A stretch of 64,000 nucleotides of DNA from Natrinema caseinilyticum. GTDB taxonomy: Archaea; Halobacteriota; Halobacteria; Halobacteriales; Natrialbaceae. Shown here in pieces: positions 16,585 to 58,443 of this stretch (the first letter of the stretch is position 1; every line of letters begins with the position of its first letter). The stretch spans positions 186,001 through 250,000 of the forward strand of contig NZ_CP100445.1 in assembly GCF_024227435.1 (NCBI RefSeq), written 5' to 3'. The position numbers and the translations under genes were made by a program. The notes beneath the pieces are model-generated. The model was not told where the DNA came from. It searched no databases and saw nothing but the letters and a program-made list of their open reading frames with translations.

Positions 16585-16956
16585 CGCGGTCGTGGACTCG
16601 ATCCGACGGGCCCGAACGGTGAATGCCCGACTGCGGTTCGGTTTCGGTTACGAGAGCCGTGCTGACCGTTCGATGAGACCCCGTGGTGACAGACGCGCTC
16701 ATGTACTACTCGAAGATATAGACGGAAACGCAAAAAAGAGCGCGTTCGTCCGACGACCACCGCTCGAGCGTTTCGCTCTTCGTTCGTCCGTCTCTCGATC
16801 GTACTCGCACTGCGAGTACCTGCCGCAACTGTGTTCTCACGTCGGTCTCTCACCAGTTGGTATCTTTTCACGAGTTTGTGCTAGACTGGGAATCATACAC
16901 AATATCTCGTTGATGGTTTTCATATACGATACCGGTTCATCATTCACAGGTTGTTG

Positions 16957-16991
16957 TACAGTTCTAGTAACTTTATACAGTTCTAGTAACT
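16957..16991 (+). repeat. 16-bp direct repeat (two copies)
   Basis: TACAGTTCTAGTAACT occurs at 16957-16972 and again at 16976-16991, a 19-bp period. It borders the C-free tract inside the origin region. Confidence 0.85.
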
Positions 16992-17088
16992 AGTGTAAGT
17001 GTAGTTTGGGTGTAGTATGAATATAGTGTGTGTATAGTGTAAGTGTGGTTTGAGTGTAGTGTGTGTATAGTGTGAGTGTAATGTGATA
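16991..17088 (+). repeat. cytosine-free GT/AT-rich tract with a 26-bp imperfect direct repeat
   Basis: No C occurs on the plus strand for 98 bases in a GC-rich genome. The tract is built of TAGTGT and AGTGTAG units. The 26-mer at 16991-17016 recurs at 17035-17060 with two mismatches (44-bp spacing). It is a plausible duplex-unwinding element for the adjacent origin. Confidence 0.8.
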
Positions 17089-17360
17089 CGTAGTGACGTG
17101 AATACGTTGTGACTAGAAATATGACCTGCTGTGGAACTCCGTGTACGGGGTTACCGTGTTCGTTTCCTATCCGTCCAACTGGATCCCGTGAGTCCAGTTA
17201 CTGATTCTACACGAGAAGCGGCGCGTGACGACGAGGGATCACCAGGACACGGCTGTGGTCGTGAGCGTTACTGTCGATTCAGATCGGACGAGTCAGCCCT
17301 CGAACCAGGAATTGATCGACGTCTCGGCACCGATCGACTGGGTCGGAATCAGTGAGACAC

Positions 17361-17386
17361 GGACACACCCCCGTCGCGTTTGTAAC
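17361..17386 (-). repeat. origin recognition box-like repeat, copy 1
   Basis: On the minus strand this reads GTTACAAACGCGACGGGGGT followed by GTGTCC. Its first 24 bases are the exact inverted counterpart of copy 2 at 17509. The G-run next to a conserved arm is typical of haloarchaeal ORBs bound by Orc1/Cdc6. Confidence 0.75.
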
Positions 17387-17508
17387 CGCTCTCACATGCG
17401 GGGGTTCTGTTACGCAACACACCAGTATCGCGGATGAAAAAGACCATCTTCTGTGCCGGAAATCGTCAAAAACCGGTGAATTCGTTCTACCGCTGCCCCG
17501 CTTTCACC

Positions 17509-17536
17509 GTTACAAACGCGACGGGGGTGTGTGTCC
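17509..17536 (+). repeat. origin recognition box-like repeat, copy 2
   Basis: Reads GTTACAAACGCGACGGGGGT followed by GTGTGTCC on the plus strand. It faces away from copy 1, with about 120 bp between them, which is the inverted ORB pair layout known from archaeal origins. Confidence 0.75.
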
Positions 17537-17682
17537 CGTCCACTGAGTACTCCCCAGCACGTCCGATCGGTTCGCGAAACCGATTTCGACGATTGCCGAG
17601 CAAACTGTCCCCGAATCGGAAACGAGCGTCGGCCTCCGGAACCGGGTGCAGGGTCCCTGTTTCTGGACCGGTTCGGTCGGGC

Positions 17683-17710
17683 GTTACATCCGCGATGGGG
17701 GTGTCCGTCC
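17683..17710 (+). repeat. origin recognition box-like repeat, copy 3 (diverged)
   Basis: GTTACATCCGCGATGGGGGT followed by GTCCGTCC, same orientation as copy 2 and conserving the GTTACA start and the G-run. A further fragment, TTACATCCGCGAT, without the G-run lies at 17814-17826 just before the orc1 promoter. Confidence 0.65.
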
Positions 17711-17876: not shown

Positions 17877-19103
17877 ATGTCCGCCAACGACGAACGAGAT
17901 CCTCTCTTTCGGTACGACGATCCGGTCTTCGCCGACGAGCGTCTGCTCGAGATCACGCACCTTCCGGGTCCGGATCGAATCGTCGGTCGTGACGAGCAGA
18001 TGCAACGGGTTGCGGACGCCCTGAACCCGGCGATATTCGGGAGCGAGCCCAACCATCTGTTCATATTTGGCAAGACCGGCACCGGTAAATCGCTCATCTC
18101 GCGGTCGGTCACCCAGCGGGTGATCACCGAAGCCCAACACGACGACGTCACCGTGAAGTACGCCTTCATCGACTGTGGCGAACAGAACACGGAGGCGTCG
18201 ATCGTCAAGACGATCGCCCAGATCGTCAACGAGTCCGAGACGAGCGGCGTCACCGTTCCCGACCGCGGCCTGGGCACGGGCGACTACTACAAGCGCCTCT
18301 GGCAGGCCGTCGATCACTGCACCGACGTCACTATCGTGATTCTCGACGAGATCGACATGCTCGAGGACGACGAGGTTCTGCGAAAGCTCTCTCGGGCCGG
18401 CGAAAATCGCCGTATCTCCGACTCGAGCATCGGTATCATCGGCATCTCGAACAAGATCGATTTCCCGGATCATCTCTCCGAGCGCGTCAAGTCGAGTCTG
18501 TCGCGGGACGAACTGGTCTTCTCTCCGTACGATGCGAACCAGCTCGTCGAAATTCTCGAAAAACGTCGCGACGCGTTCCACGACGGGGTGTTGTCCGCCG
18601 ACGTCATCCCGCTGACCGCGGCGCTCGCGGCCCAGGAGCACGGCGACGCGCGGAAGGCGATCGACATCCTCCGAAACGCAGGTCGGATCGCCAAGAAGCG
18701 AAACGATACTCGAGTGACTGCGGATCACGTCCGAGATGCAAAGGAAAAGACGGAGGCCGACCGGTTCAACGAGTTGATCGAAGGGTCGCCCCAGCAGGCG
18801 AAGGCGATCCTCTACTCGCTGACGCTACTCACCGAAAATAGCACGGAGAAGGAATTTCCGACGAAAATCATCTACAATCAGTACAAGGAGGTCGCTCGCC
18901 AACTCGACTTCGACGTCCTCTCGGAGCGACGAGTACAGGAGATCCTCCAGGAACAGAACTTCCTCAACGTGATCCAGTCCGAGCGAGAGGGACGCGGCCG
19001 GGGCCGCGGCGCACACGCGAAACACCGCTTGCTGGAGAACCCGTCGATCGTCAAGAAAGTTCTCCTCCGTGACTCGCGGTTAGCGGTCCTGGAAAACGAG
19101 TAA
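17877..19103 (+). CDS. orc1: Orc1/Cdc6 family replication initiator
   Basis: 408 residues, AAA+ ATPase plus winged helix. Walker A is GKTGTGKS at about residue 63, Walker B is VILDEIDMLED and sensor 1 is GIIGISNKIDF; the C-terminal winged-helix portion (TEKEFPTKIIYNQYKEVARQ) has the Arg/Gly-rich GRGRGRGAHAKHRLLENPSI end. Such proteins bind ORBs and recruit the MCM helicase. ATG at 17877 is preferred; the longer upstream frame runs through the origin repeats and is not protein-like. TTTATTTCAA at about 17840 is a suitable TATA element. Location next to inverted ORBs suggests it serves this origin. Confidence 0.95.
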   Translation: MSANDERDPLFRYDDPVFADERLLEITHLPGPDRIVGRDEQMQRVADALNPAIFGSEPNHLFIFGKTGTGKSLISRSVTQRVITEAQHDDVTVKYAFIDCGEQNTEASIVKTIAQIVNESETSGVTVPDRGLGTGDYYKRLWQAVDHCTDVTIVILDEIDMLEDDEVLRKLSRAGENRRISDSSIGIIGISNKIDFPDHLSERVKSSLSRDELVFSPYDANQLVEILEKRRDAFHDGVLSADVIPLTAALAAQEHGDARKAIDILRNAGRIAKKRNDTRVTADHVRDAKEKTEADRFNELIEGSPQQAKAILYSLTLLTENSTEKEFPTKIIYNQYKEVARQLDFDVLSERRVQEILQEQNFLNVIQSEREGRGRGRGAHAKHRLLENPSIVKKVLLRDSRLAVLENE

Positions 19104-48861: not shown

Positions 48862-49134
48862 CCGGGCGCCTCGAGACTATTTCTCCCGTCATTCCCGTGT
48901 CTTACCCGGCACCGAATACCGAGTGGCGGATACCGAGTGTTCGCTTGACGGCTGCCGTCCGCTCCCCGGCCCCGTCTTGTCTCTGACTTCCGAACGGGCC
49001 GCTCGTCGGGTCCATTCTCCCTGGCGACAGCCGCGTCTGTGCCTGTCTCGCTCTGAGTATCCGACTCCGCCGAGTCTGCGCGACGGTGTCGCCTCGTGAA
49101 TGCCCAACGTAGAACACTGTCAATCCGAGACGAC

Positions 49135-49151
49135 GGCCTTATGTAGGGGCC
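49135..49151 (+). promoter_or_regulatory. rRNA promoter P1
   Basis: TATA-type TTATGTA between GGCC arms (GGCC-TTATGTAGG-GGCC). Most distal of the four promoter elements, about 600 bp from the 16S gene. Confidence 0.6.
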
Positions 49152-49334
49152 AGGTCTTCCACACTAATGCGAACGACGCGGCGCACGCCGCCGCGTTCCC
49201 TCCGGCCGTTTTCCGGCACGGAGGCAGGAAACTATCCATCTCCTCGGAGCGGCCATCGGCTCGTCCGATGGTCGACTCTGGGATGCTCGGATCGGTCGTG
49301 CTCAACGCTGGATTACCAGCGATACAGTGCGCTG

Positions 49335-49347
49335 GCCTTATATAGGC
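49335..49347 (+). promoter_or_regulatory. rRNA promoter P2
   Basis: GCCTTATATAGGC, a TATA box inside a short inverted repeat, followed by GC-rich sequence. Confidence 0.6.
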
Positions 49348-49415
49348 TGGGCGCGTACTGTAACTTGCACAAAAGGTCCTGCCGGATGCGGTTTTCGGCG
49401 GGAACTCGATCCGAT

Positions 49416-49435
49416 GCCCTTATATGTACGAGGGC
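49416..49435 (+). promoter_or_regulatory. rRNA promoter P3
   Basis: CTTATATGTA flanked by GCCCT and AGGGC. A GAACTCGATCC block precedes it where a BRE/upstream element would sit. Confidence 0.6.
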
Positions 49436-49510
49436 AGTTGGATATGAACGCAACAAACGCGTGATCGACGGCCCGTTCAACTCGGGCCGTCATCTCGGGC
49501 GACGTGAGTT

Positions 49511-49529
49511 CGAAGGGGTTATGTACCCC
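49511..49529 (+). promoter_or_regulatory. rRNA promoter P4
   Basis: CGAAGGGGTTATGTACCCC: a BRE-like CGAA followed by a TATA element framed by perfect GGGGT/ACCCC arms. Nearest to the 16S gene. Confidence 0.6.
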
Positions 49530-49601
49530 AGACAGCTTACGAATACGTCCGAAGGAAATGAGGATCCTACCCCTGCGGTCCGCCGTATAGATGGGATCTG
49601 A

Positions 49602-49619
49602 TGTTAGCCCTGGTAGTTC
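49602..49619 (+). other. 16S precursor processing stem, 5' arm
   Basis: TGTTAGCCCTGGTAGTTC is exactly complementary to GAACTACCAGGGCTAACA at 51329-51346, forming the 18-bp base of the helix that encloses the 16S rRNA and is cut at a bulge-helix-bulge by the splicing endonuclease. Confidence 0.75.
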
Positions 49620-49743
49620 GGTGACGCCCGACCGGTCGTCGCGACCGGCTGTCGTCGTCGAACGTGGACCATTTACCAAATGTGTGAGTGTGTGCAACAT
49701 TCACCGCCAGACCCCGAGCACATCTCGGGGAGACATAGCATTC

Positions 49744-51217
<1,474 letters not shown>

Positions 51218-51328
51218 ACAGACCGAGACCAGGCCGACGCGCCTGGCTCACTGCGGATCGCGATCGCGGTTTTCGAACCGCACACGTTCGATCGATACAG
51301 TCACTCGACTGGCCGATCGGGCACCTCA

Positions 51329-51346
51329 GAACTACCAGGGCTAACA
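51329..51346 (+). other. 16S precursor processing stem, 3' arm
   Basis: Complement of the arm at 49602-49619; lies between the 16S gene and tRNA-Ala. Confidence 0.75.
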
Positions 51347-51381
51347 CCCAACTCCCTGCCCGCCTCTCACGAGGCGGGCGT

Positions 51382-51453
51382 GGGCCCATAGCTCAGTGGT
51401 AGAGTGCCTCCTTTGCAAGGAGGATGCCCAGGGTTCGAATCCCTGTGGGTCCA
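51382..51453 (+). tRNA. tRNA-Ala (anticodon TGC)
   Basis: 72 nt in the 16S-23S spacer, the usual place of tRNA-Ala in haloarchaeal rRNA operons. Acceptor arm GGGCCCA/TGGGTCC, D arm with AGCTCAGTGGTAGAG, anticodon stem CCTCC/GGAGG around the loop with TGC at 51414-51416, and T arm CAGGGTTCGAATCCCTG. No intron; CCA is not encoded. Confidence 0.98.
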
Positions 51454-51600
51454 TGTCTCGGAGGAAATCTCGGATCGTGTCCCTTAAGTGGGAGACGGCC
51501 CGAGGATTGAATCCGAACGAACCGATGCACCACCCCGTGCAAACGTGGGTGGGAAGGGTTAATGCGGGCCGGCCGTCTACCGGCGCGCAGATGAGACCGT

Positions 51601-51640
51601 GTGTACGTGTAGTCCAGGCGTCCACTGGACCCGTTCCCGG
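51601..51640 (+). other. 23S precursor processing stem, 5' arm
   Basis: GTGTACGTGTAGTCCAG plus GCGTCC and GGACCCGTTC pair with GAACGGGTCC, GGACGC and CTGGACTACACATACAC around 54638-54672 beyond the 23S 3' end. One mismatch in the outer 17 bp. Confidence 0.65.
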
Positions 51641-51682
51641 GTCACGATGTTGCGACTCTGTCGCAACGCCGATCCGATGAAC

Positions 51683-54595
<2,913 letters not shown>

Positions 54596-54637
54596 ACTCA
54601 TAACTACAACATCATCGCATTGGATCCGTGACGCGCG

Positions 54638-54672
54638 AACGGGTCCGGACGCAAACTGGACTACACATACAC
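54638..54672 (+). other. 23S precursor processing stem, 3' arm
   Basis: Counterpart of the arm at 51601-51640. It lies in the 23S-5S spacer, which contains no tRNA. Confidence 0.65.
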
Positions 54673-54749
54673 AACGGTCACAGACACGAGCACGCAGACA
54701 CCGTATCACCGATATTGGCATGACGGCGGTTCGATTCCGTCGATCGGCG

Positions 54750-54871
54750 TTACGGCGGCCACAGCGGCGAGGTACCTCCCGTACCCATCCCGAACACGGA
54801 AGATAAGCTCGCCTGCGTTACGGCCAGTACTGGAGTGCGCGAGCCTCTGGGAACCCCGTTTCGCCGCCGAC
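54750..54871 (+). rRNA. rrf: 5S ribosomal RNA
   Basis: About 122 nt. Starts TTACGGCGGCCACAGCGG and contains CCCGTACCCATCCCGAACAC and GGAGTGCGCGAGCCTCTGGG, all typical of archaeal 5S; ends with GCCGCC complementary to the 5' GGCGGC. Last gene of the operon. No tRNA-Cys follows, although that is frequent in haloarchaea. Confidence 0.97.
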
Positions 54872-54893
54872 CACTCATACTCGTACTCTCTTT

Positions 54894-54940
54894 CGCCCCC
54901 GCGAGCGACCGCACCGGCGGTCACCCGCGGGGGCGTTTTG
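54894..54940 (+). terminator. GC hairpin plus T-run after 5S
   Basis: CGCCCCCGCG (54894-54903) pairs perfectly with CGCGGGGGCG (54926-54935), with an inner GACCG/CGGTC stem, followed by TTTT. Archaeal terminators mainly need T-runs, so the hairpin may also protect the RNA end. Confidence 0.65.
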
Positions 54941-55082
54941 CGTATCCAAAACCGGATAGTGACGACAGTAACTCCGTACGTGGCCTCCAGGTACCGAGGC
55001 GGGAGAAATCGGTCGCGTATCGCGACCCGTATCAAATATTTTTGGAACGAAACTTATCCGATTGTTTGGAAAAGACCGGTAC

Positions 55083-55499
55083 ATGGACACAGGGGAAGCC
55101 GCTCCGGACCTCGATACGCTTTACGAACTATTGTCAAAATCACGCCGTCGATACGTCCTGTATTATCTCCTCGACAGCGACCGCGCGAGCATCGGCGGAC
55201 TGACACGGCAGGTCGCCGCATGGGAACGGGACATTTCGATCGAATCGGTGTCCGAGGAACAGCAGAAATCGGTCGTGGTGTCGCTGCTACACAACCATCT
55301 CCCGCGACTCGAGGAACACGACGTGGTCACAGTCAATCGGCGACGTGGCGATGTCGTCAGTGGACAGTGCTTCGAAGTTGTCGCGTCCACCGTGAAACGC
55401 GCACGAGAGGATGACGGAATCGGGTCGGTCGTCGGTCCATCGTCTGAAACGTTTCTGTACGGTGATGACGTGTCGGAATCGACGAACTCGGATCGGTAG
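55083..55499 (+). CDS. DUF7344-type winged-helix protein
   Basis: 138 residues from ATG at 55083 (MDTGEAAPDLDTLYELLSKS). The haloarchaeal winged-helix pattern SRRRYVLYYLLDSDRASIGG, then RQVAAWERDI, KSVVVSLLHNHLPRLEEHDV and VVTVNRRRGDVV matches proteins annotated with DUF7344, usually small DNA-binding regulators, sometimes near rRNA or mobile loci. A TATA-like CAAATATTTTTGG lies about 45 bp upstream. First gene of the variable stretch after the rRNA operon. Confidence 0.8.
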   Translation: MDTGEAAPDLDTLYELLSKSRRRYVLYYLLDSDRASIGGLTRQVAAWERDISIESVSEEQQKSVVVSLLHNHLPRLEEHDVVTVNRRRGDVVSGQCFEVVASTVKRAREDDGIGSVVGPSSETFLYGDDVSESTNSDR

Positions 55500-55955
55500 C
55501 TCGATCGGAGACGGTGGTTCTGTACGCCGCTGGTTTTCGAAGCGCACTCTGTGTACGCGGACTGGGAACCGCGACGGCGAAGCAGAGGGCCGGTGTCATC
55601 GTGGCGGTTGAGAAGGGGACGAGTGACGGTGAAACGGGGGACGAAAGCTGTCGGCGTGGGATAGTGGGAGACTGGTGGCGAGCGGCGGACGCGTTTACTG
55701 AACAGGTGCGGGGGCGGACACGGCCGTCGAATCCGCGGGTTGGCCCACCACAGCAGCGATGAAGCGCGAAGGGGAGGCGTCGGTCCTCGATCTCGGCAGT
55801 CAGTCGTCTGTCAGACCGTGAACGACCACACGCTCCGTCTCACCGCTCTCACGTCCCTCTCGCATTTTCGGACGGCGACTCCGGAGCGCAGAGGGGCACG
55901 AGGGGACGGGGAACAGTCTCGGGCTTTCGAGTACGCGGTCGGCTACCGATGGCGA
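55500..55955. other. intergenic region, no gene recognised
   Basis: About 455 bp between the convergent DUF7344-type and asparagine-synthetase-like genes. Several short open frames exist, but their translations are Arg/Thr-rich and unlike haloarchaeal proteins. No repeats noticed; it may be decayed coding sequence. Confidence 0.4.
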
Positions 55956-57749
55956 TCAGTCGCCGTTGGAAACGGGGCCGTGAGCGCTACTGCAGGACCC
56001 CTCGGAGATCGACTGGATCCATTCACGAGACCCTTCGACCGGTTCGATATCGGGATTCGAGAGGACGCGGTCGCGCCAGATCGCGTAGGTGATGAGATTC
56101 CACGTCACCGGACCGTACGATTCGATGTGGTCCGCGTGCATCGAGTCGGGGACAAAGGCTGGCGGATCGTATCGGTCGAAAACGGTGTCGAGTGGCCCCG
56201 ATTCGAAGTACCGTTCGATCGGCAACGCCCCCGACCCCTTCTGCTGCTCGACGGGATAGTCGGTACAACGGTCGGCGAGGAGGGATTTCAGCAGGTACTT
56301 CGGCTCGAGAAACGTCGGTGCGAGGGTCCCCACGTCTCGGAGGCCTTGAACGTAGCGCCGACGAGTGGGGACGGCGAGTCCGCGACGGGCCAGACGTTCA
56401 CACCGGAACGGATACACTACCGTCGTGTCGTGGGAGTACGCCAGTTGACGCCACTGTCCGCACGTGTTGTGGCGGAGGAAGCAGTACAGATGGCCGTACG
56501 CGGCGTGCCTCGAGAATGCATCGTCAGCGGCGAGGTCGACTCGCTGAGTGAGATAATCGTACTGTGCGTGGATGCGCTGGTCCACCGTCTCTGCGCCGAG
56601 TGCCGTGGCGACGACGTCGCTATCAGTATAGAAGGGGAGTTGAACGGCGAACGAGTCTGGGTCGGCGGGATGTCGACCCGCCTGGGTGGCGATACGTAAT
56701 AACGAGTCGAACTGGTCTGAGAGGGGTCCCGGGACCACCGTCGACGCACGGTCGGGGACGCGCGTGAGGAGCGAGTCGAACCAGGTCGCGATTCGCAGAC
56801 CCTTCGCTCCTGGCATCCCGAAGAGTGCGTCGGCACCCTCACCGTTGAGGTAGGCGTCGATCGAGTCGCTGTCACGAGCGAAGGCGGCGTCCGTCAGAGC
56901 GGTCTGCGCGTAGTGGGAGGGGAACCCGAGACGATCGATGCTCGTCTCGAGGTGAGAGAGGTACTCCGATTCGTCGATATCGACGCGCCGTGGCATCGCG
57001 TCGAGTAACGAAGCTGCAAGGTCGGCGTACTCCTGCTCGAACGCGACCTCTGGGCTGTCGAGTTGGATGACGAGTGACGGTTCGTCTTCGCGGTAGGTGT
57101 GCAAGAGGGTCGAGTCGACACCACCGGAGAGCATCGTCGCGACCGTGTCGCCCCCACAGACATCCTCGAGGAGTGATGCGAGCGTTCGATCGATGACGGC
57201 GGGTGCGTCGTCTGGAGCCAGTCCCTCCGGCGTCTCGCTCCCGCTGCTTCCGGAGAGGTGTGACACCTGCGTTCGCGTCTGGTCGTCGTCTCGGAGCGAC
57301 CACTGAAGCCACGTTCCCTGTCCGAGTGCGTCGACTCGCGAGACGTACGTCTCCGGTTCGATCGGTGCTCTGAACAGCAGGTGGTCGGCGATAGCCGCGG
57401 TCGTGACCGTTCTGTCCGAGACGTCCAGGTGAGCGAGGGCGTTCCTGAAGTGATCGGTCACCACTACGTCACCGTCTGACCCCCGGAGCGTGTACAGTTC
57501 CCGCGTCGCCGTTACGCTCCTGAACGCATCGATCTCGTGAGCGCCGTCTAATCGGGTCGAGATGTGTACGACGATGGCATCTTCGACGACGCCGTCGAGA
57601 TCGTCCCAGGCGTGCCGTGGGGAACTGGCGCTCGTGAGAACTCGTTCGATGGCGTCAGGTCGGTTCCCCGAGATGATCCAGTAGCCACTGTCGGACCCGA
57701 CGAGTCGACAGTTCGGGTCAGCGAATAGCACGCGTACGTCATTGGCCAT
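55956..57749 (-). CDS. asparagine-synthetase-like enzyme without a glutaminase cysteine
   Basis: 597 residues from the ATG complementing 57747-57749 (MANDVRVLFADPNC); upstream in-frame codons are basic and improbable. The C-terminal half is an ATP-pyrophosphatase synthetase domain with the PP-loop ATMLSGGVDST at about residues 205-214 and YLNGEGADALFGMPG (G-E-G-A-D) later. The N-terminal half has the class II amidotransferase outline but lacks the Cys right after Met. This is seen in amide- or lactam-forming relatives such as beta-lactam synthetases and lasso-peptide cyclases, which adenylate a carboxylate and join it to an amine. True asparagine synthesis with ammonia is the alternative. A small peptide gene lies about 700 bp upstream on the same strand. 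Confidence 0.8.
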   Translation of the reverse strand: MANDVRVLFADPNCRLVGSDSGYWIISGNRPDAIERVLTSASSPRHAWDDLDGVVEDAIVVHISTRLDGAHEIDAFRSVTATRELYTLRGSDGDVVVTDHFRNALAHLDVSDRTVTTAAIADHLLFRAPIEPETYVSRVDALGQGTWLQWSLRDDDQTRTQVSHLSGSSGSETPEGLAPDDAPAVIDRTLASLLEDVCGGDTVATMLSGGVDSTLLHTYREDEPSLVIQLDSPEVAFEQEYADLAASLLDAMPRRVDIDESEYLSHLETSIDRLGFPSHYAQTALTDAAFARDSDSIDAYLNGEGADALFGMPGAKGLRIATWFDSLLTRVPDRASTVVPGPLSDQFDSLLRIATQAGRHPADPDSFAVQLPFYTDSDVVATALGAETVDQRIHAQYDYLTQRVDLAADDAFSRHAAYGHLYCFLRHNTCGQWRQLAYSHDTTVVYPFRCERLARRGLAVPTRRRYVQGLRDVGTLAPTFLEPKYLLKSLLADRCTDYPVEQQKGSGALPIERYFESGPLDTVFDRYDPPAFVPDSMHADHIESYGPVTWNLITYAIWRDRVLSNPDIEPVEGSREWIQSISEGSCSSAHGPVSNGD

Positions 57750-58443
57750 ACTCGCGATAAATTGATCCTCATTTTCCTTATCGGGATCATAACCGCGACG
57801 CCCCGTTCGAGTCACGTCGCCGACAGGAATTGCCCCCGACGACCCGCCGTCTGCCTCGACGGGTCGTTCAGTGCGTACCCGTTTCGACGGTTGTCTGAGA
57901 CACGACGGAATGAGTGTGCTGACTCTCACCACCTGGGACGGCACGTGCGCGTCTCGACGTCGCTCTCGAGTACGGAAAGACCCGATATCTGTGGTGTCCT
58001 GACCGACTACAGGGACGGTATTGCCGGTCTCGGATCGGCGCCGATCGCCCATCGTGGTCGGTGAGAATCGCAGTCGGAAGATTCGGAACCCCGGGCACGT
58101 CCGAGAACGTCTCACGTATCTATGATATCCCTGGTTCCGGCGGACGCCTGCCGTGCGCGCTGGGTCGAGTTTCGAATTCACGTACAGTTTCGAGTGACGA
58201 GAATGTCGATCACCCCTATGGTATTTTCGCGGTCAGTGACAGTGAGCGCCACGTCGTGGTTCGGAGCGTGCAACGCGACACCAGCCACTCGATGGCCACC
58301 CCATCACCCACTCGAACGGACTCGAAGGGCGCTCAGATCTTGCCGGAGAGTCGAAACTGGTGAAATCGGCCGAGTGCGGCGCTATCGCACGTGAACGGAT
58401 GGGATGGGGCTGGACGAGACGACGGCTGACGGTGAGCGACCGA
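57750..58443. other. intergenic region between the peptide gene and the asparagine-synthetase-like gene
   Basis: About 690 bp. The synthetase frame is open through much of it, but the translation is Arg/Ser/Thr-rich and lacks domains, so I treat it as non-coding. No tRNA, strong repeat or CRISPR unit is visible. Short unannotated peptides cannot be excluded. Confidence 0.4.

What the first reader, a model, noticed from the sequence alone, without database searches (positions are those of the whole stretch)
16957..17110. 98-base cytosine-free tract with nested direct repeats beside the origin
Seen: from 16991 to 17088 the plus strand has no C at all in a genome of high GC content, is built of TAGTGT/AGTGTAG units, has a 26-bp repeat with 44-bp spacing, and is preceded by two 16-bp direct repeats. 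Such strand asymmetry could favour unwinding, G-rich single-strand structure or stable RNA:DNA hybrids. It lies outside the ORB pair rather than between them, unlike the usual duplex-unwinding element, so its role may be distinct.
Basis: seen in the sequence. Interest (0 to 1): 0.65.

Follow-up and report, generated by a model that had tools for sequence, protein, structure and literature searches.

The report
Repeat inside an origin's methylation-site cluster
The 98-base stretch without a C is real but is a species-specific short repeat; it sits inside a conserved, easily melted block of CTAG sites (targets of a DNA-methylating enzyme) beside a replication origin in one family of salt-loving archaea, and that block, not the missing C, is the part likely to matter.

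Summary
Confirmed: 16991-17088 has no C. It is the only C-free (or G-free) run of 60 bases or more in the 4.77 Mb genome. It is an 11-bp degenerate tandem array (TAGTGTGAGTG, about 9 units), preceded by two exact 16-bp repeats. The array is absent from all relatives examined, including the closest one, where the same spot holds a 17-bp duplication containing CTAG. What is conserved is the element around it. Across 50 Natrialbaceae loci the rare tetramer CTAG is about 41-fold enriched 560-1000 bp upstream of this orc1/cdc6 gene. In 45 of 45 loci with a CTAG cluster, the thermodynamically weakest 100 bp of the upstream region coincides with the cluster and lies outside the inverted ORB pair. CTAG is the target of a widespread haloarchaeal orphan m4C methyltransferase, whose orthologue this genome carries. 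Best reading: a lineage-specific minisatellite inside an origin-flanking, CTAG-methylated, easily unwound element. CTAG density near haloarchaeal orc1/cdc6 genes was already reported (PMC4752239). Added here: the exact element, its coincidence with the weakest DNA outside the ORBs, its repeat turnover, and an independent MTase+/MTase- contrast. G-quadruplex, folded-strand, SegB-centromere and known-RNA readings were not supported.

The parts
16991..17088 (+). C-free tract: degenerate 11-bp tandem array, about 8.9 units (TAGTGTGAGTG), with 33- and 44-bp higher-order repeats
16957..16991 (+). two exact 16-bp direct repeats TACAGTTCTAGTAACT at 16957 and 16976, each holding one CTAG
16964..17116 (.). 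CTAG cluster: sites at 16964, 16983, 16990 and 17113 (a further one at 16881); CTAG is 9-fold rarer than expected in the window as a whole
16942..17041 (.). least stable 100 bp of the 64 kb window (nearest-neighbour mean -1.18 kcal/mol per step against window mean -1.57, sd 0.07): duplex-unwinding-element-like
17364..17388 (-). ORB1 (origin recognition box), score 39.4
17507..17531 (+). ORB2, inverted relative to ORB1, score 42.5
17681..17705 (+). ORB3, score 39.1
17877..19103 (+). orc1/cdc6 replication initiator gene adjacent to the origin
   Evidence: TIGR02928, 2.6e-123; homologous to orc1 of Natrinema gelatinilyticum, 100% identity in the best segment
15823..16584 (-). TrmJ/YjtD-family RNA methyltransferase gene; left border of the origin intergenic region
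   Evidence: TIGR00050

Best explanation
The C-free tract is a lineage-specific 11-bp minisatellite that grew by tandem duplication next to a CTAG site inside a family-wide, AT-rich, CTAG-dense element flanking the ORB array of an orc1/cdc6-linked origin. Shown: the anatomy, the conservation of CTAG and low stability, the absence of the array in relatives, and the presence of the cognate MTase gene. Inferred: the CTAG sites are N4-cytosine-methylated by the MthZI/HVO_0794-type orphan methyltransferase, become hemimethylated after the fork passes, and so mark or gate the easily melted DNA beside the ORBs, loosely as GATC/Dam does at E. coli oriC. The array itself most likely acts only as weak, structure-free filler DNA that lengthens the low-stability stretch and spaces the CTAG sites 16990 and 17113.
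For: CTAG is 41-fold enriched at -1000..-560 of orc1 over 50 Natrialbaceae loci (266 in 21.9 kb against 120 in 406 kb). The next palindromic tetramer is 6-fold, and composition alone predicts 83. The weakest 100 bp coincides with the CTAG cluster in 45/45 loci and lies beyond the ORBs. ORB spacing is rigid while the CTAG element floats, and no ORB lies beyond it. Only seven places in the own genome have three CTAG this close, and the two associated with orc genes are this element and the classic oriC1, where eight CTAG lie between inverted ORBs. The closest relative has the same flanks (TTCTAGTAACTAGTGTGAG and GACTAGAAA) with a 17-bp duplication instead of the array. Many other loci have 9-20-bp tandem units containing CTAG there. 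The MTase orthologue is in the genome and 49% identical to the MTase beside an MjaI-family REase on pFZ1. AT-rich elements at classic oriC1 hold 34 CTAG (8.4 expected) in 16 MTase+ genomes and 4 (4.5 expected) in 9 MTase- genomes.
Against: No methylation, replication or unwinding data exist for this organism. Halorussaceae-like genomes G105 and G052 have the MTase but no cluster at the related orc, so the MTase does not require the element. In the own classic oriC1 the weakest 100 bp lies beside the CTAG cluster, not in it. Deleting HVO_0794 with other RM genes gave no growth defect in Haloferax volcanii (PMC5867850). AT-rich DNA and CTAG could each be tolerated only because the region is non-coding. 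The MTase+/- contrast is not corrected for phylogeny; 8 of 9 MTase- genomes are of one family.
Confidence: 0.6

Rival explanations
1. Neutral only: both the C-free array and the CTAG block are unselected non-coding DNA in which short tandem duplications accumulate; the tract has no role at all.
For: The array is in no relative. Short tandem arrays are about twice as dense in the upstream regions as in the rest of the loci (49 in 65 kb against 136 in 373 kb). C-free runs of 60 or more occur elsewhere in 21 of 28 congeners, those listed being mostly AT islands.
Against: CTAG is avoided genome-wide yet enriched 41-fold exactly here across many genera of the family, 3-fold above local composition, and always at the weakest DNA. 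This is plausible for the array alone, not for the CTAG element.
Confidence: 0.25
2. The strand asymmetry is functional: the C-free strand is a structure-free single-strand landing or unwinding track (or the non-template strand of an R-loop from a transcript entering the origin).
For: Neither strand can fold. C-poor plus-strand stretches next to the CTAG cluster recur in Natronococcus, Halostagnicola and Natrialba loci, whereas G-poor ones are nearly absent. A TTTATA box at about 16974 could start rightward transcription (read by eye).
Against: In most relatives the element is not C-poor. Mean skew left of the cluster is only +0.16, against +0.10 to its right. There is no transcript evidence and no Rfam match.
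Confidence: 0.1
3. The CTAG cluster is a centromere-like binding site of a SegB-type partition protein rather than a methylation element.
For: The Sulfolobus SegB motif TCTAGASTCTAGA contains CTAG (PMC12284271), and bacterial centromeres lie near origins (general knowledge).
Against: With 3 mismatches the motif has no match in the element and is at chance level in the window. Flanks in the clusters are merely A/T, with no extended SegB core.
Confidence: 0.05

Closest known systems
CTAG motif clusters upstream of orc1/cdc6 with a conserved orphan m4C methyltransferase in Haloarchaea (Blow et al. 2016, PMC4752239)
   Same: CTAG cluster in non-coding DNA upstream of orc1/cdc6, orthologous location in many species, cognate MTase present.
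   Different: That report gives motif density over 50 kb; here the element is placed relative to ORBs, coincides with the weakest DNA outside the ORB pair, and in this species carries a CTAG-less, C-free 11-bp array.
Haloarchaeal orc/cdc6-adjacent origins with inverted ORBs (PMC3528665; Haloarcula hispanica oriC1, PMC3936714)
   Same: Orc1/Cdc6 gene, inverted ORBs with halophile G-string, intergenic AT-rich element.
   Different: In described oriC1 the AT-rich region is between the ORBs; here the weakest DNA lies distal to ORB1, away from orc1.
E. coli oriC GATC/Dam/SeqA sequestration
   Same: Dense sites of an orphan methyltransferase at the origin beside or in the unwinding region.
   Different: Different base and motif (m4C CTAG); no reader protein known; methylation not shown here.

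Membership tests
CTAG orphan-MTase origin clusters of Haloarchaea (PMC4752239) | orthologue of the CTAG m4C methyltransferase in the genome | tested here: met
   G000:C1:325661-326719; 49% identical over 96% to the MTase beside an MjaI-family REase on pFZ1; strong matches in all 14 family members sampled
CTAG orphan-MTase origin clusters of Haloarchaea (PMC4752239) | CTAG cluster in non-coding DNA upstream of orc1/cdc6, conserved at the orthologous place | tested here: met
   42 of 50 loci with 3 or more CTAG at -1000..-560; 41-fold enrichment
CTAG orphan-MTase origin clusters of Haloarchaea (PMC4752239) | cluster presence follows MTase presence | tested here: inconclusive
   holds at classic oriC1 (34 against 8.4 expected in MTase+; 4 against 4.5 in MTase-) but not phylogenetically corrected; MTase+ genomes G105 and G052 lack the cluster at this orc
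CTAG orphan-MTase origin clusters of Haloarchaea (PMC4752239) | sites methylated or hemimethylated in vivo | not testable with these tools
   no methylome data for this genome
ORB-type archaeal replication origin | orc1/cdc6 gene next to inverted ORBs | tested here: met
   ORBs at 17364(-), 17507(+), 17681(+); no other hit in 64 kb
ORB-type archaeal replication origin | AT-rich unwinding region between the inverted ORBs | tested here: not met
   best inter-ORB 100 bp is -1.41 kcal/mol per step; the weakest DNA (-1.18) lies outside, at the CTAG element
ORB-type archaeal replication origin | origin activity in vivo | not testable with these tools
   no replication profile available
G-quadruplex / folded single strand | four G-runs or a stable fold | tested here: not met
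   one GGG run; minimum free energy 0
SegB centromere sites | TCTAGASTCTAGA motif | tested here: not met
   no match in the element with up to 3 mismatches

The most novel reading that the evidence does not exclude
In Natrialbaceae the true unwinding element of this origin lies outside the ORB pair. Its opening is gated by m4C methylation of the CTAG sites within it, and the C-free array is an extreme, strand-asymmetric version of a unidirectional melting or loading track.
Probability: 0.12. Interest if true: 0.78.

Novelty: new variant of a known kind. Interest (0 to 1): 0.42.

Why it matters
The role of CTAG methylation in haloarchaea is an open question in the literature read here (PMC6471742, PMC5867850). 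This gives an exact, about 150-bp, family-wide element where CTAG sites sit in the weakest DNA beside the ORBs, with genomes that have or lack the methyltransferase as natural controls. That makes a Dam/SeqA-like role in an archaeon directly testable. For the tract itself the message is sobering: a striking sequence oddity turned out to be a species-specific repeat within a conserved element.

Tried and rejected
Conserved C-free or strand-asymmetric signature: rejected as a family feature, because most relatives have no C-free run of 30 or more there and the skew difference is weak. G-quadruplex or strand fold: rejected. Known RNA: no Rfam match. SegB-type motif: rejected. Bacterial-type promoters and terminators: at chance level (not suited to archaea). 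Testing the MTase correlation with orc hits from outside the family at the window's orc1: uninformative, since most hits there were paralogues at about 50% identity; replaced by the classic oriC1 orc. Natrinema sp. J7 ARS data (PMC5350488) could not be mapped to this origin. A paper search gave no earlier report of CTAG in the unwinding element.

Full report
OBSERVATION. The plus strand from 16991 to 17088 has no cytosine (98 nt; T40 G35 A23); the window has no other C-free run of 30 or more. A scan of the whole 4.77 Mb genome for 60 consecutive non-C bases on either strand gives only this place (39 overlapping matches, all in the tract). Under independent bases about 1.7e-12 such runs are expected in 64 kb. 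The tract is a tandem array with an 11-bp period: units TAGTGTAAGTG, TAGTTTGGGTG, TAGTATGAATA, TAGTGTGTGTA, TAGTGTAAGTG, TGGTTTGAGTG, TAGTGTGTGTA, TAGTGTGAGTG, TAATGTGATA. TRF reports periods 11, 33 and 44. The two 16-bp repeats are exact (TACAGTTCTAGTAACT at 16957 and 16976).

SETTING. The window belongs to a haloarchaeon of GTDB genus g1, whose named members in these results are mostly Natrinema. The adjacent Orc1/Cdc6 (17877-19103) is homologous to that of Natrinema gelatinilyticum, 100% identical in the best segment, and hits TIGR02928. A weight matrix built from 114 ORB instances finds three ORBs in the window and nothing else in 64 kb: 17364 (-), 17507 (+) and 17681 (+). Spacing between the first two ORBs is nearly fixed in most loci of the family. 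The tract lies 276 bp to the left of ORB1, with no ORB beyond it in any locus.

WHAT IS CONSERVED. The tract is not. In 72 orc loci fetched by homology, no upstream region has a C-free run longer than 56. In the closest relative (L032) the same place reads TTCTAGTAACTAGTGTGAGTTAGTAACTAGTGTGAGTATGTATCGACTAGAAA: the same flanks, with a 17-bp duplication instead of the array. What recurs everywhere is CTAG. This tetramer is avoided genome-wide (24 in the window against 215 expected from composition). Yet over 50 Natrialbaceae loci it occurs 266 times in the 440 bp from -1000 to -560 against 120 times in 406 kb of flanking sequence, a 41-fold enrichment. The next palindromic tetramer, TATA, is 6-fold, and local composition predicts only 83. 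In the own genome only seven places have three CTAG within short reach. The two associated with orc genes are this element and the classic oriC1 (L115, eight CTAG in 107 bp between inverted ORBs of a 609-aa Orc1/Cdc6). That this second origin is the classic oriC1 is judged from its ORB sequence and from the conservation of its Orc across all 28 genomes searched.

UNWINDING. With nearest-neighbour energies, 16942-17041 is the least stable 100 bp of the 64 kb (-1.18 against mean -1.57, sd 0.07 kcal/mol per step). The best inter-ORB stretch is only -1.41. In all 45 loci with at least three CTAG, the weakest 100 bp of the 1.3 kb upstream of orc1 contains two or more CTAG and lies outside the ORB pair. 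Caveat: at the own classic oriC1 the weakest 100 bp (L115:8916-9015) is next to the CTAG cluster, not in it, though again outside the ORB pair.

METHYLTRANSFERASE. CTAG is the target of the orphan m4C methyltransferase of Halobacteria (HVO_0794 family; PMC5867850, PMC6471742). The genome encodes an orthologue at C1:325661-326719. It is 49% identical over 96% to the methyltransferase that sits beside an MjaI-family restriction enzyme on pFZ1; that this is M.MthZI, specific for CTAG, is from general knowledge. A natural contrast exists at the classic oriC1: in 16 genomes with the enzyme the weakest AT-rich element holds 34 CTAG against 8.4 expected from composition; in 9 genomes without it, 4 against 4.5 (Mann-Whitney p about 0.002, not corrected for relatedness, 8 of the 9 from one family). 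One within-genus pair agrees (G139 with, G128 without). Against a simple rule, two MTase-bearing genomes of family f17 lack a cluster at the window-type orc.

HOW THE TRACT AROSE. The CTAG elements of many species contain short tandem duplications with 9-20-bp units, usually carrying CTAG (ACTAGTCTAGA, TACTAGTCTAG, CTAGACTAG, TAGTAACTAGTGTGAGT). The window's unit TAGTGTGAGTG is the right half of such a unit starting just after the C of the CTAG at 16990, so each further copy is preceded by G or A and the array has no C. This is inference from the sequence. Similar C-poor, G/T/A-rich degenerate arrays lie beside the CTAG sites in Natronococcus and Halostagnicola (periods 9-10), so the process is recurrent; the direction of the asymmetry is mostly plus-strand, but the average effect is weak.

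HOW IT MOST LIKELY WORKS. Shown: a CTAG-dense, low-stability element outside the ORB array, conserved in position class but not in sequence, and the cognate enzyme in the genome. Inferred: CTAG sites are methylated, become hemimethylated on replication and modulate use of the adjacent weak DNA or origin. The array contributes unstable, structure-free DNA and is probably otherwise neutral.

NOVELTY. Blow et al. (PMC4752239) already described CTAG density peaks at orc1/cdc6 correlated with the orphan methyltransferase, and PMC5867850 discussed the idea for Haloferax volcanii with mixed support. The window element is a member of that kind. New here are its placement relative to ORBs, its identity with the weakest DNA off the ORB pair across one family, the repeat turnover that explains the C-free tract, and the composition-controlled MTase contrast.

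Noticed in passing
L115:8647-8753 (own genome C1:2370646-2370752): Densest CTAG cluster of the genome, eight sites between inverted ORBs next to a 609-aa Orc1/Cdc6 with a large internal insertion; probably the classic oriC1.
   Followed up: partly
own genome C1:2467366-2467406 and C1:3911955-3911978: CTAG triplets away from any orc gene seen here, conserved in Natrinema gelatinilyticum (G023 C1:1654918 and C1:2827493); the first lies between two gene starts and may be a regulatory site.
   Followed up: no
window 49000-58000: Stretch of lower G+C (0.57-0.62) with a raised density of CTAG (six sites in 52458-54100), possibly acquired DNA.
   Followed up: no
L073 upstream region, -980 to -915 relative to orc1: Telomere-like G-rich repeats (GGGATTAGGGTTGAGGTTGGG) to the left of the CTAG element in Halobiforma nitratireducens.
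   Followed up: no
origins L032-L089: In most loci the first two ORBs are 142-146 bp apart, while the distance of the CTAG element from them varies widely (about 65 to 640 bp).
   Followed up: partly
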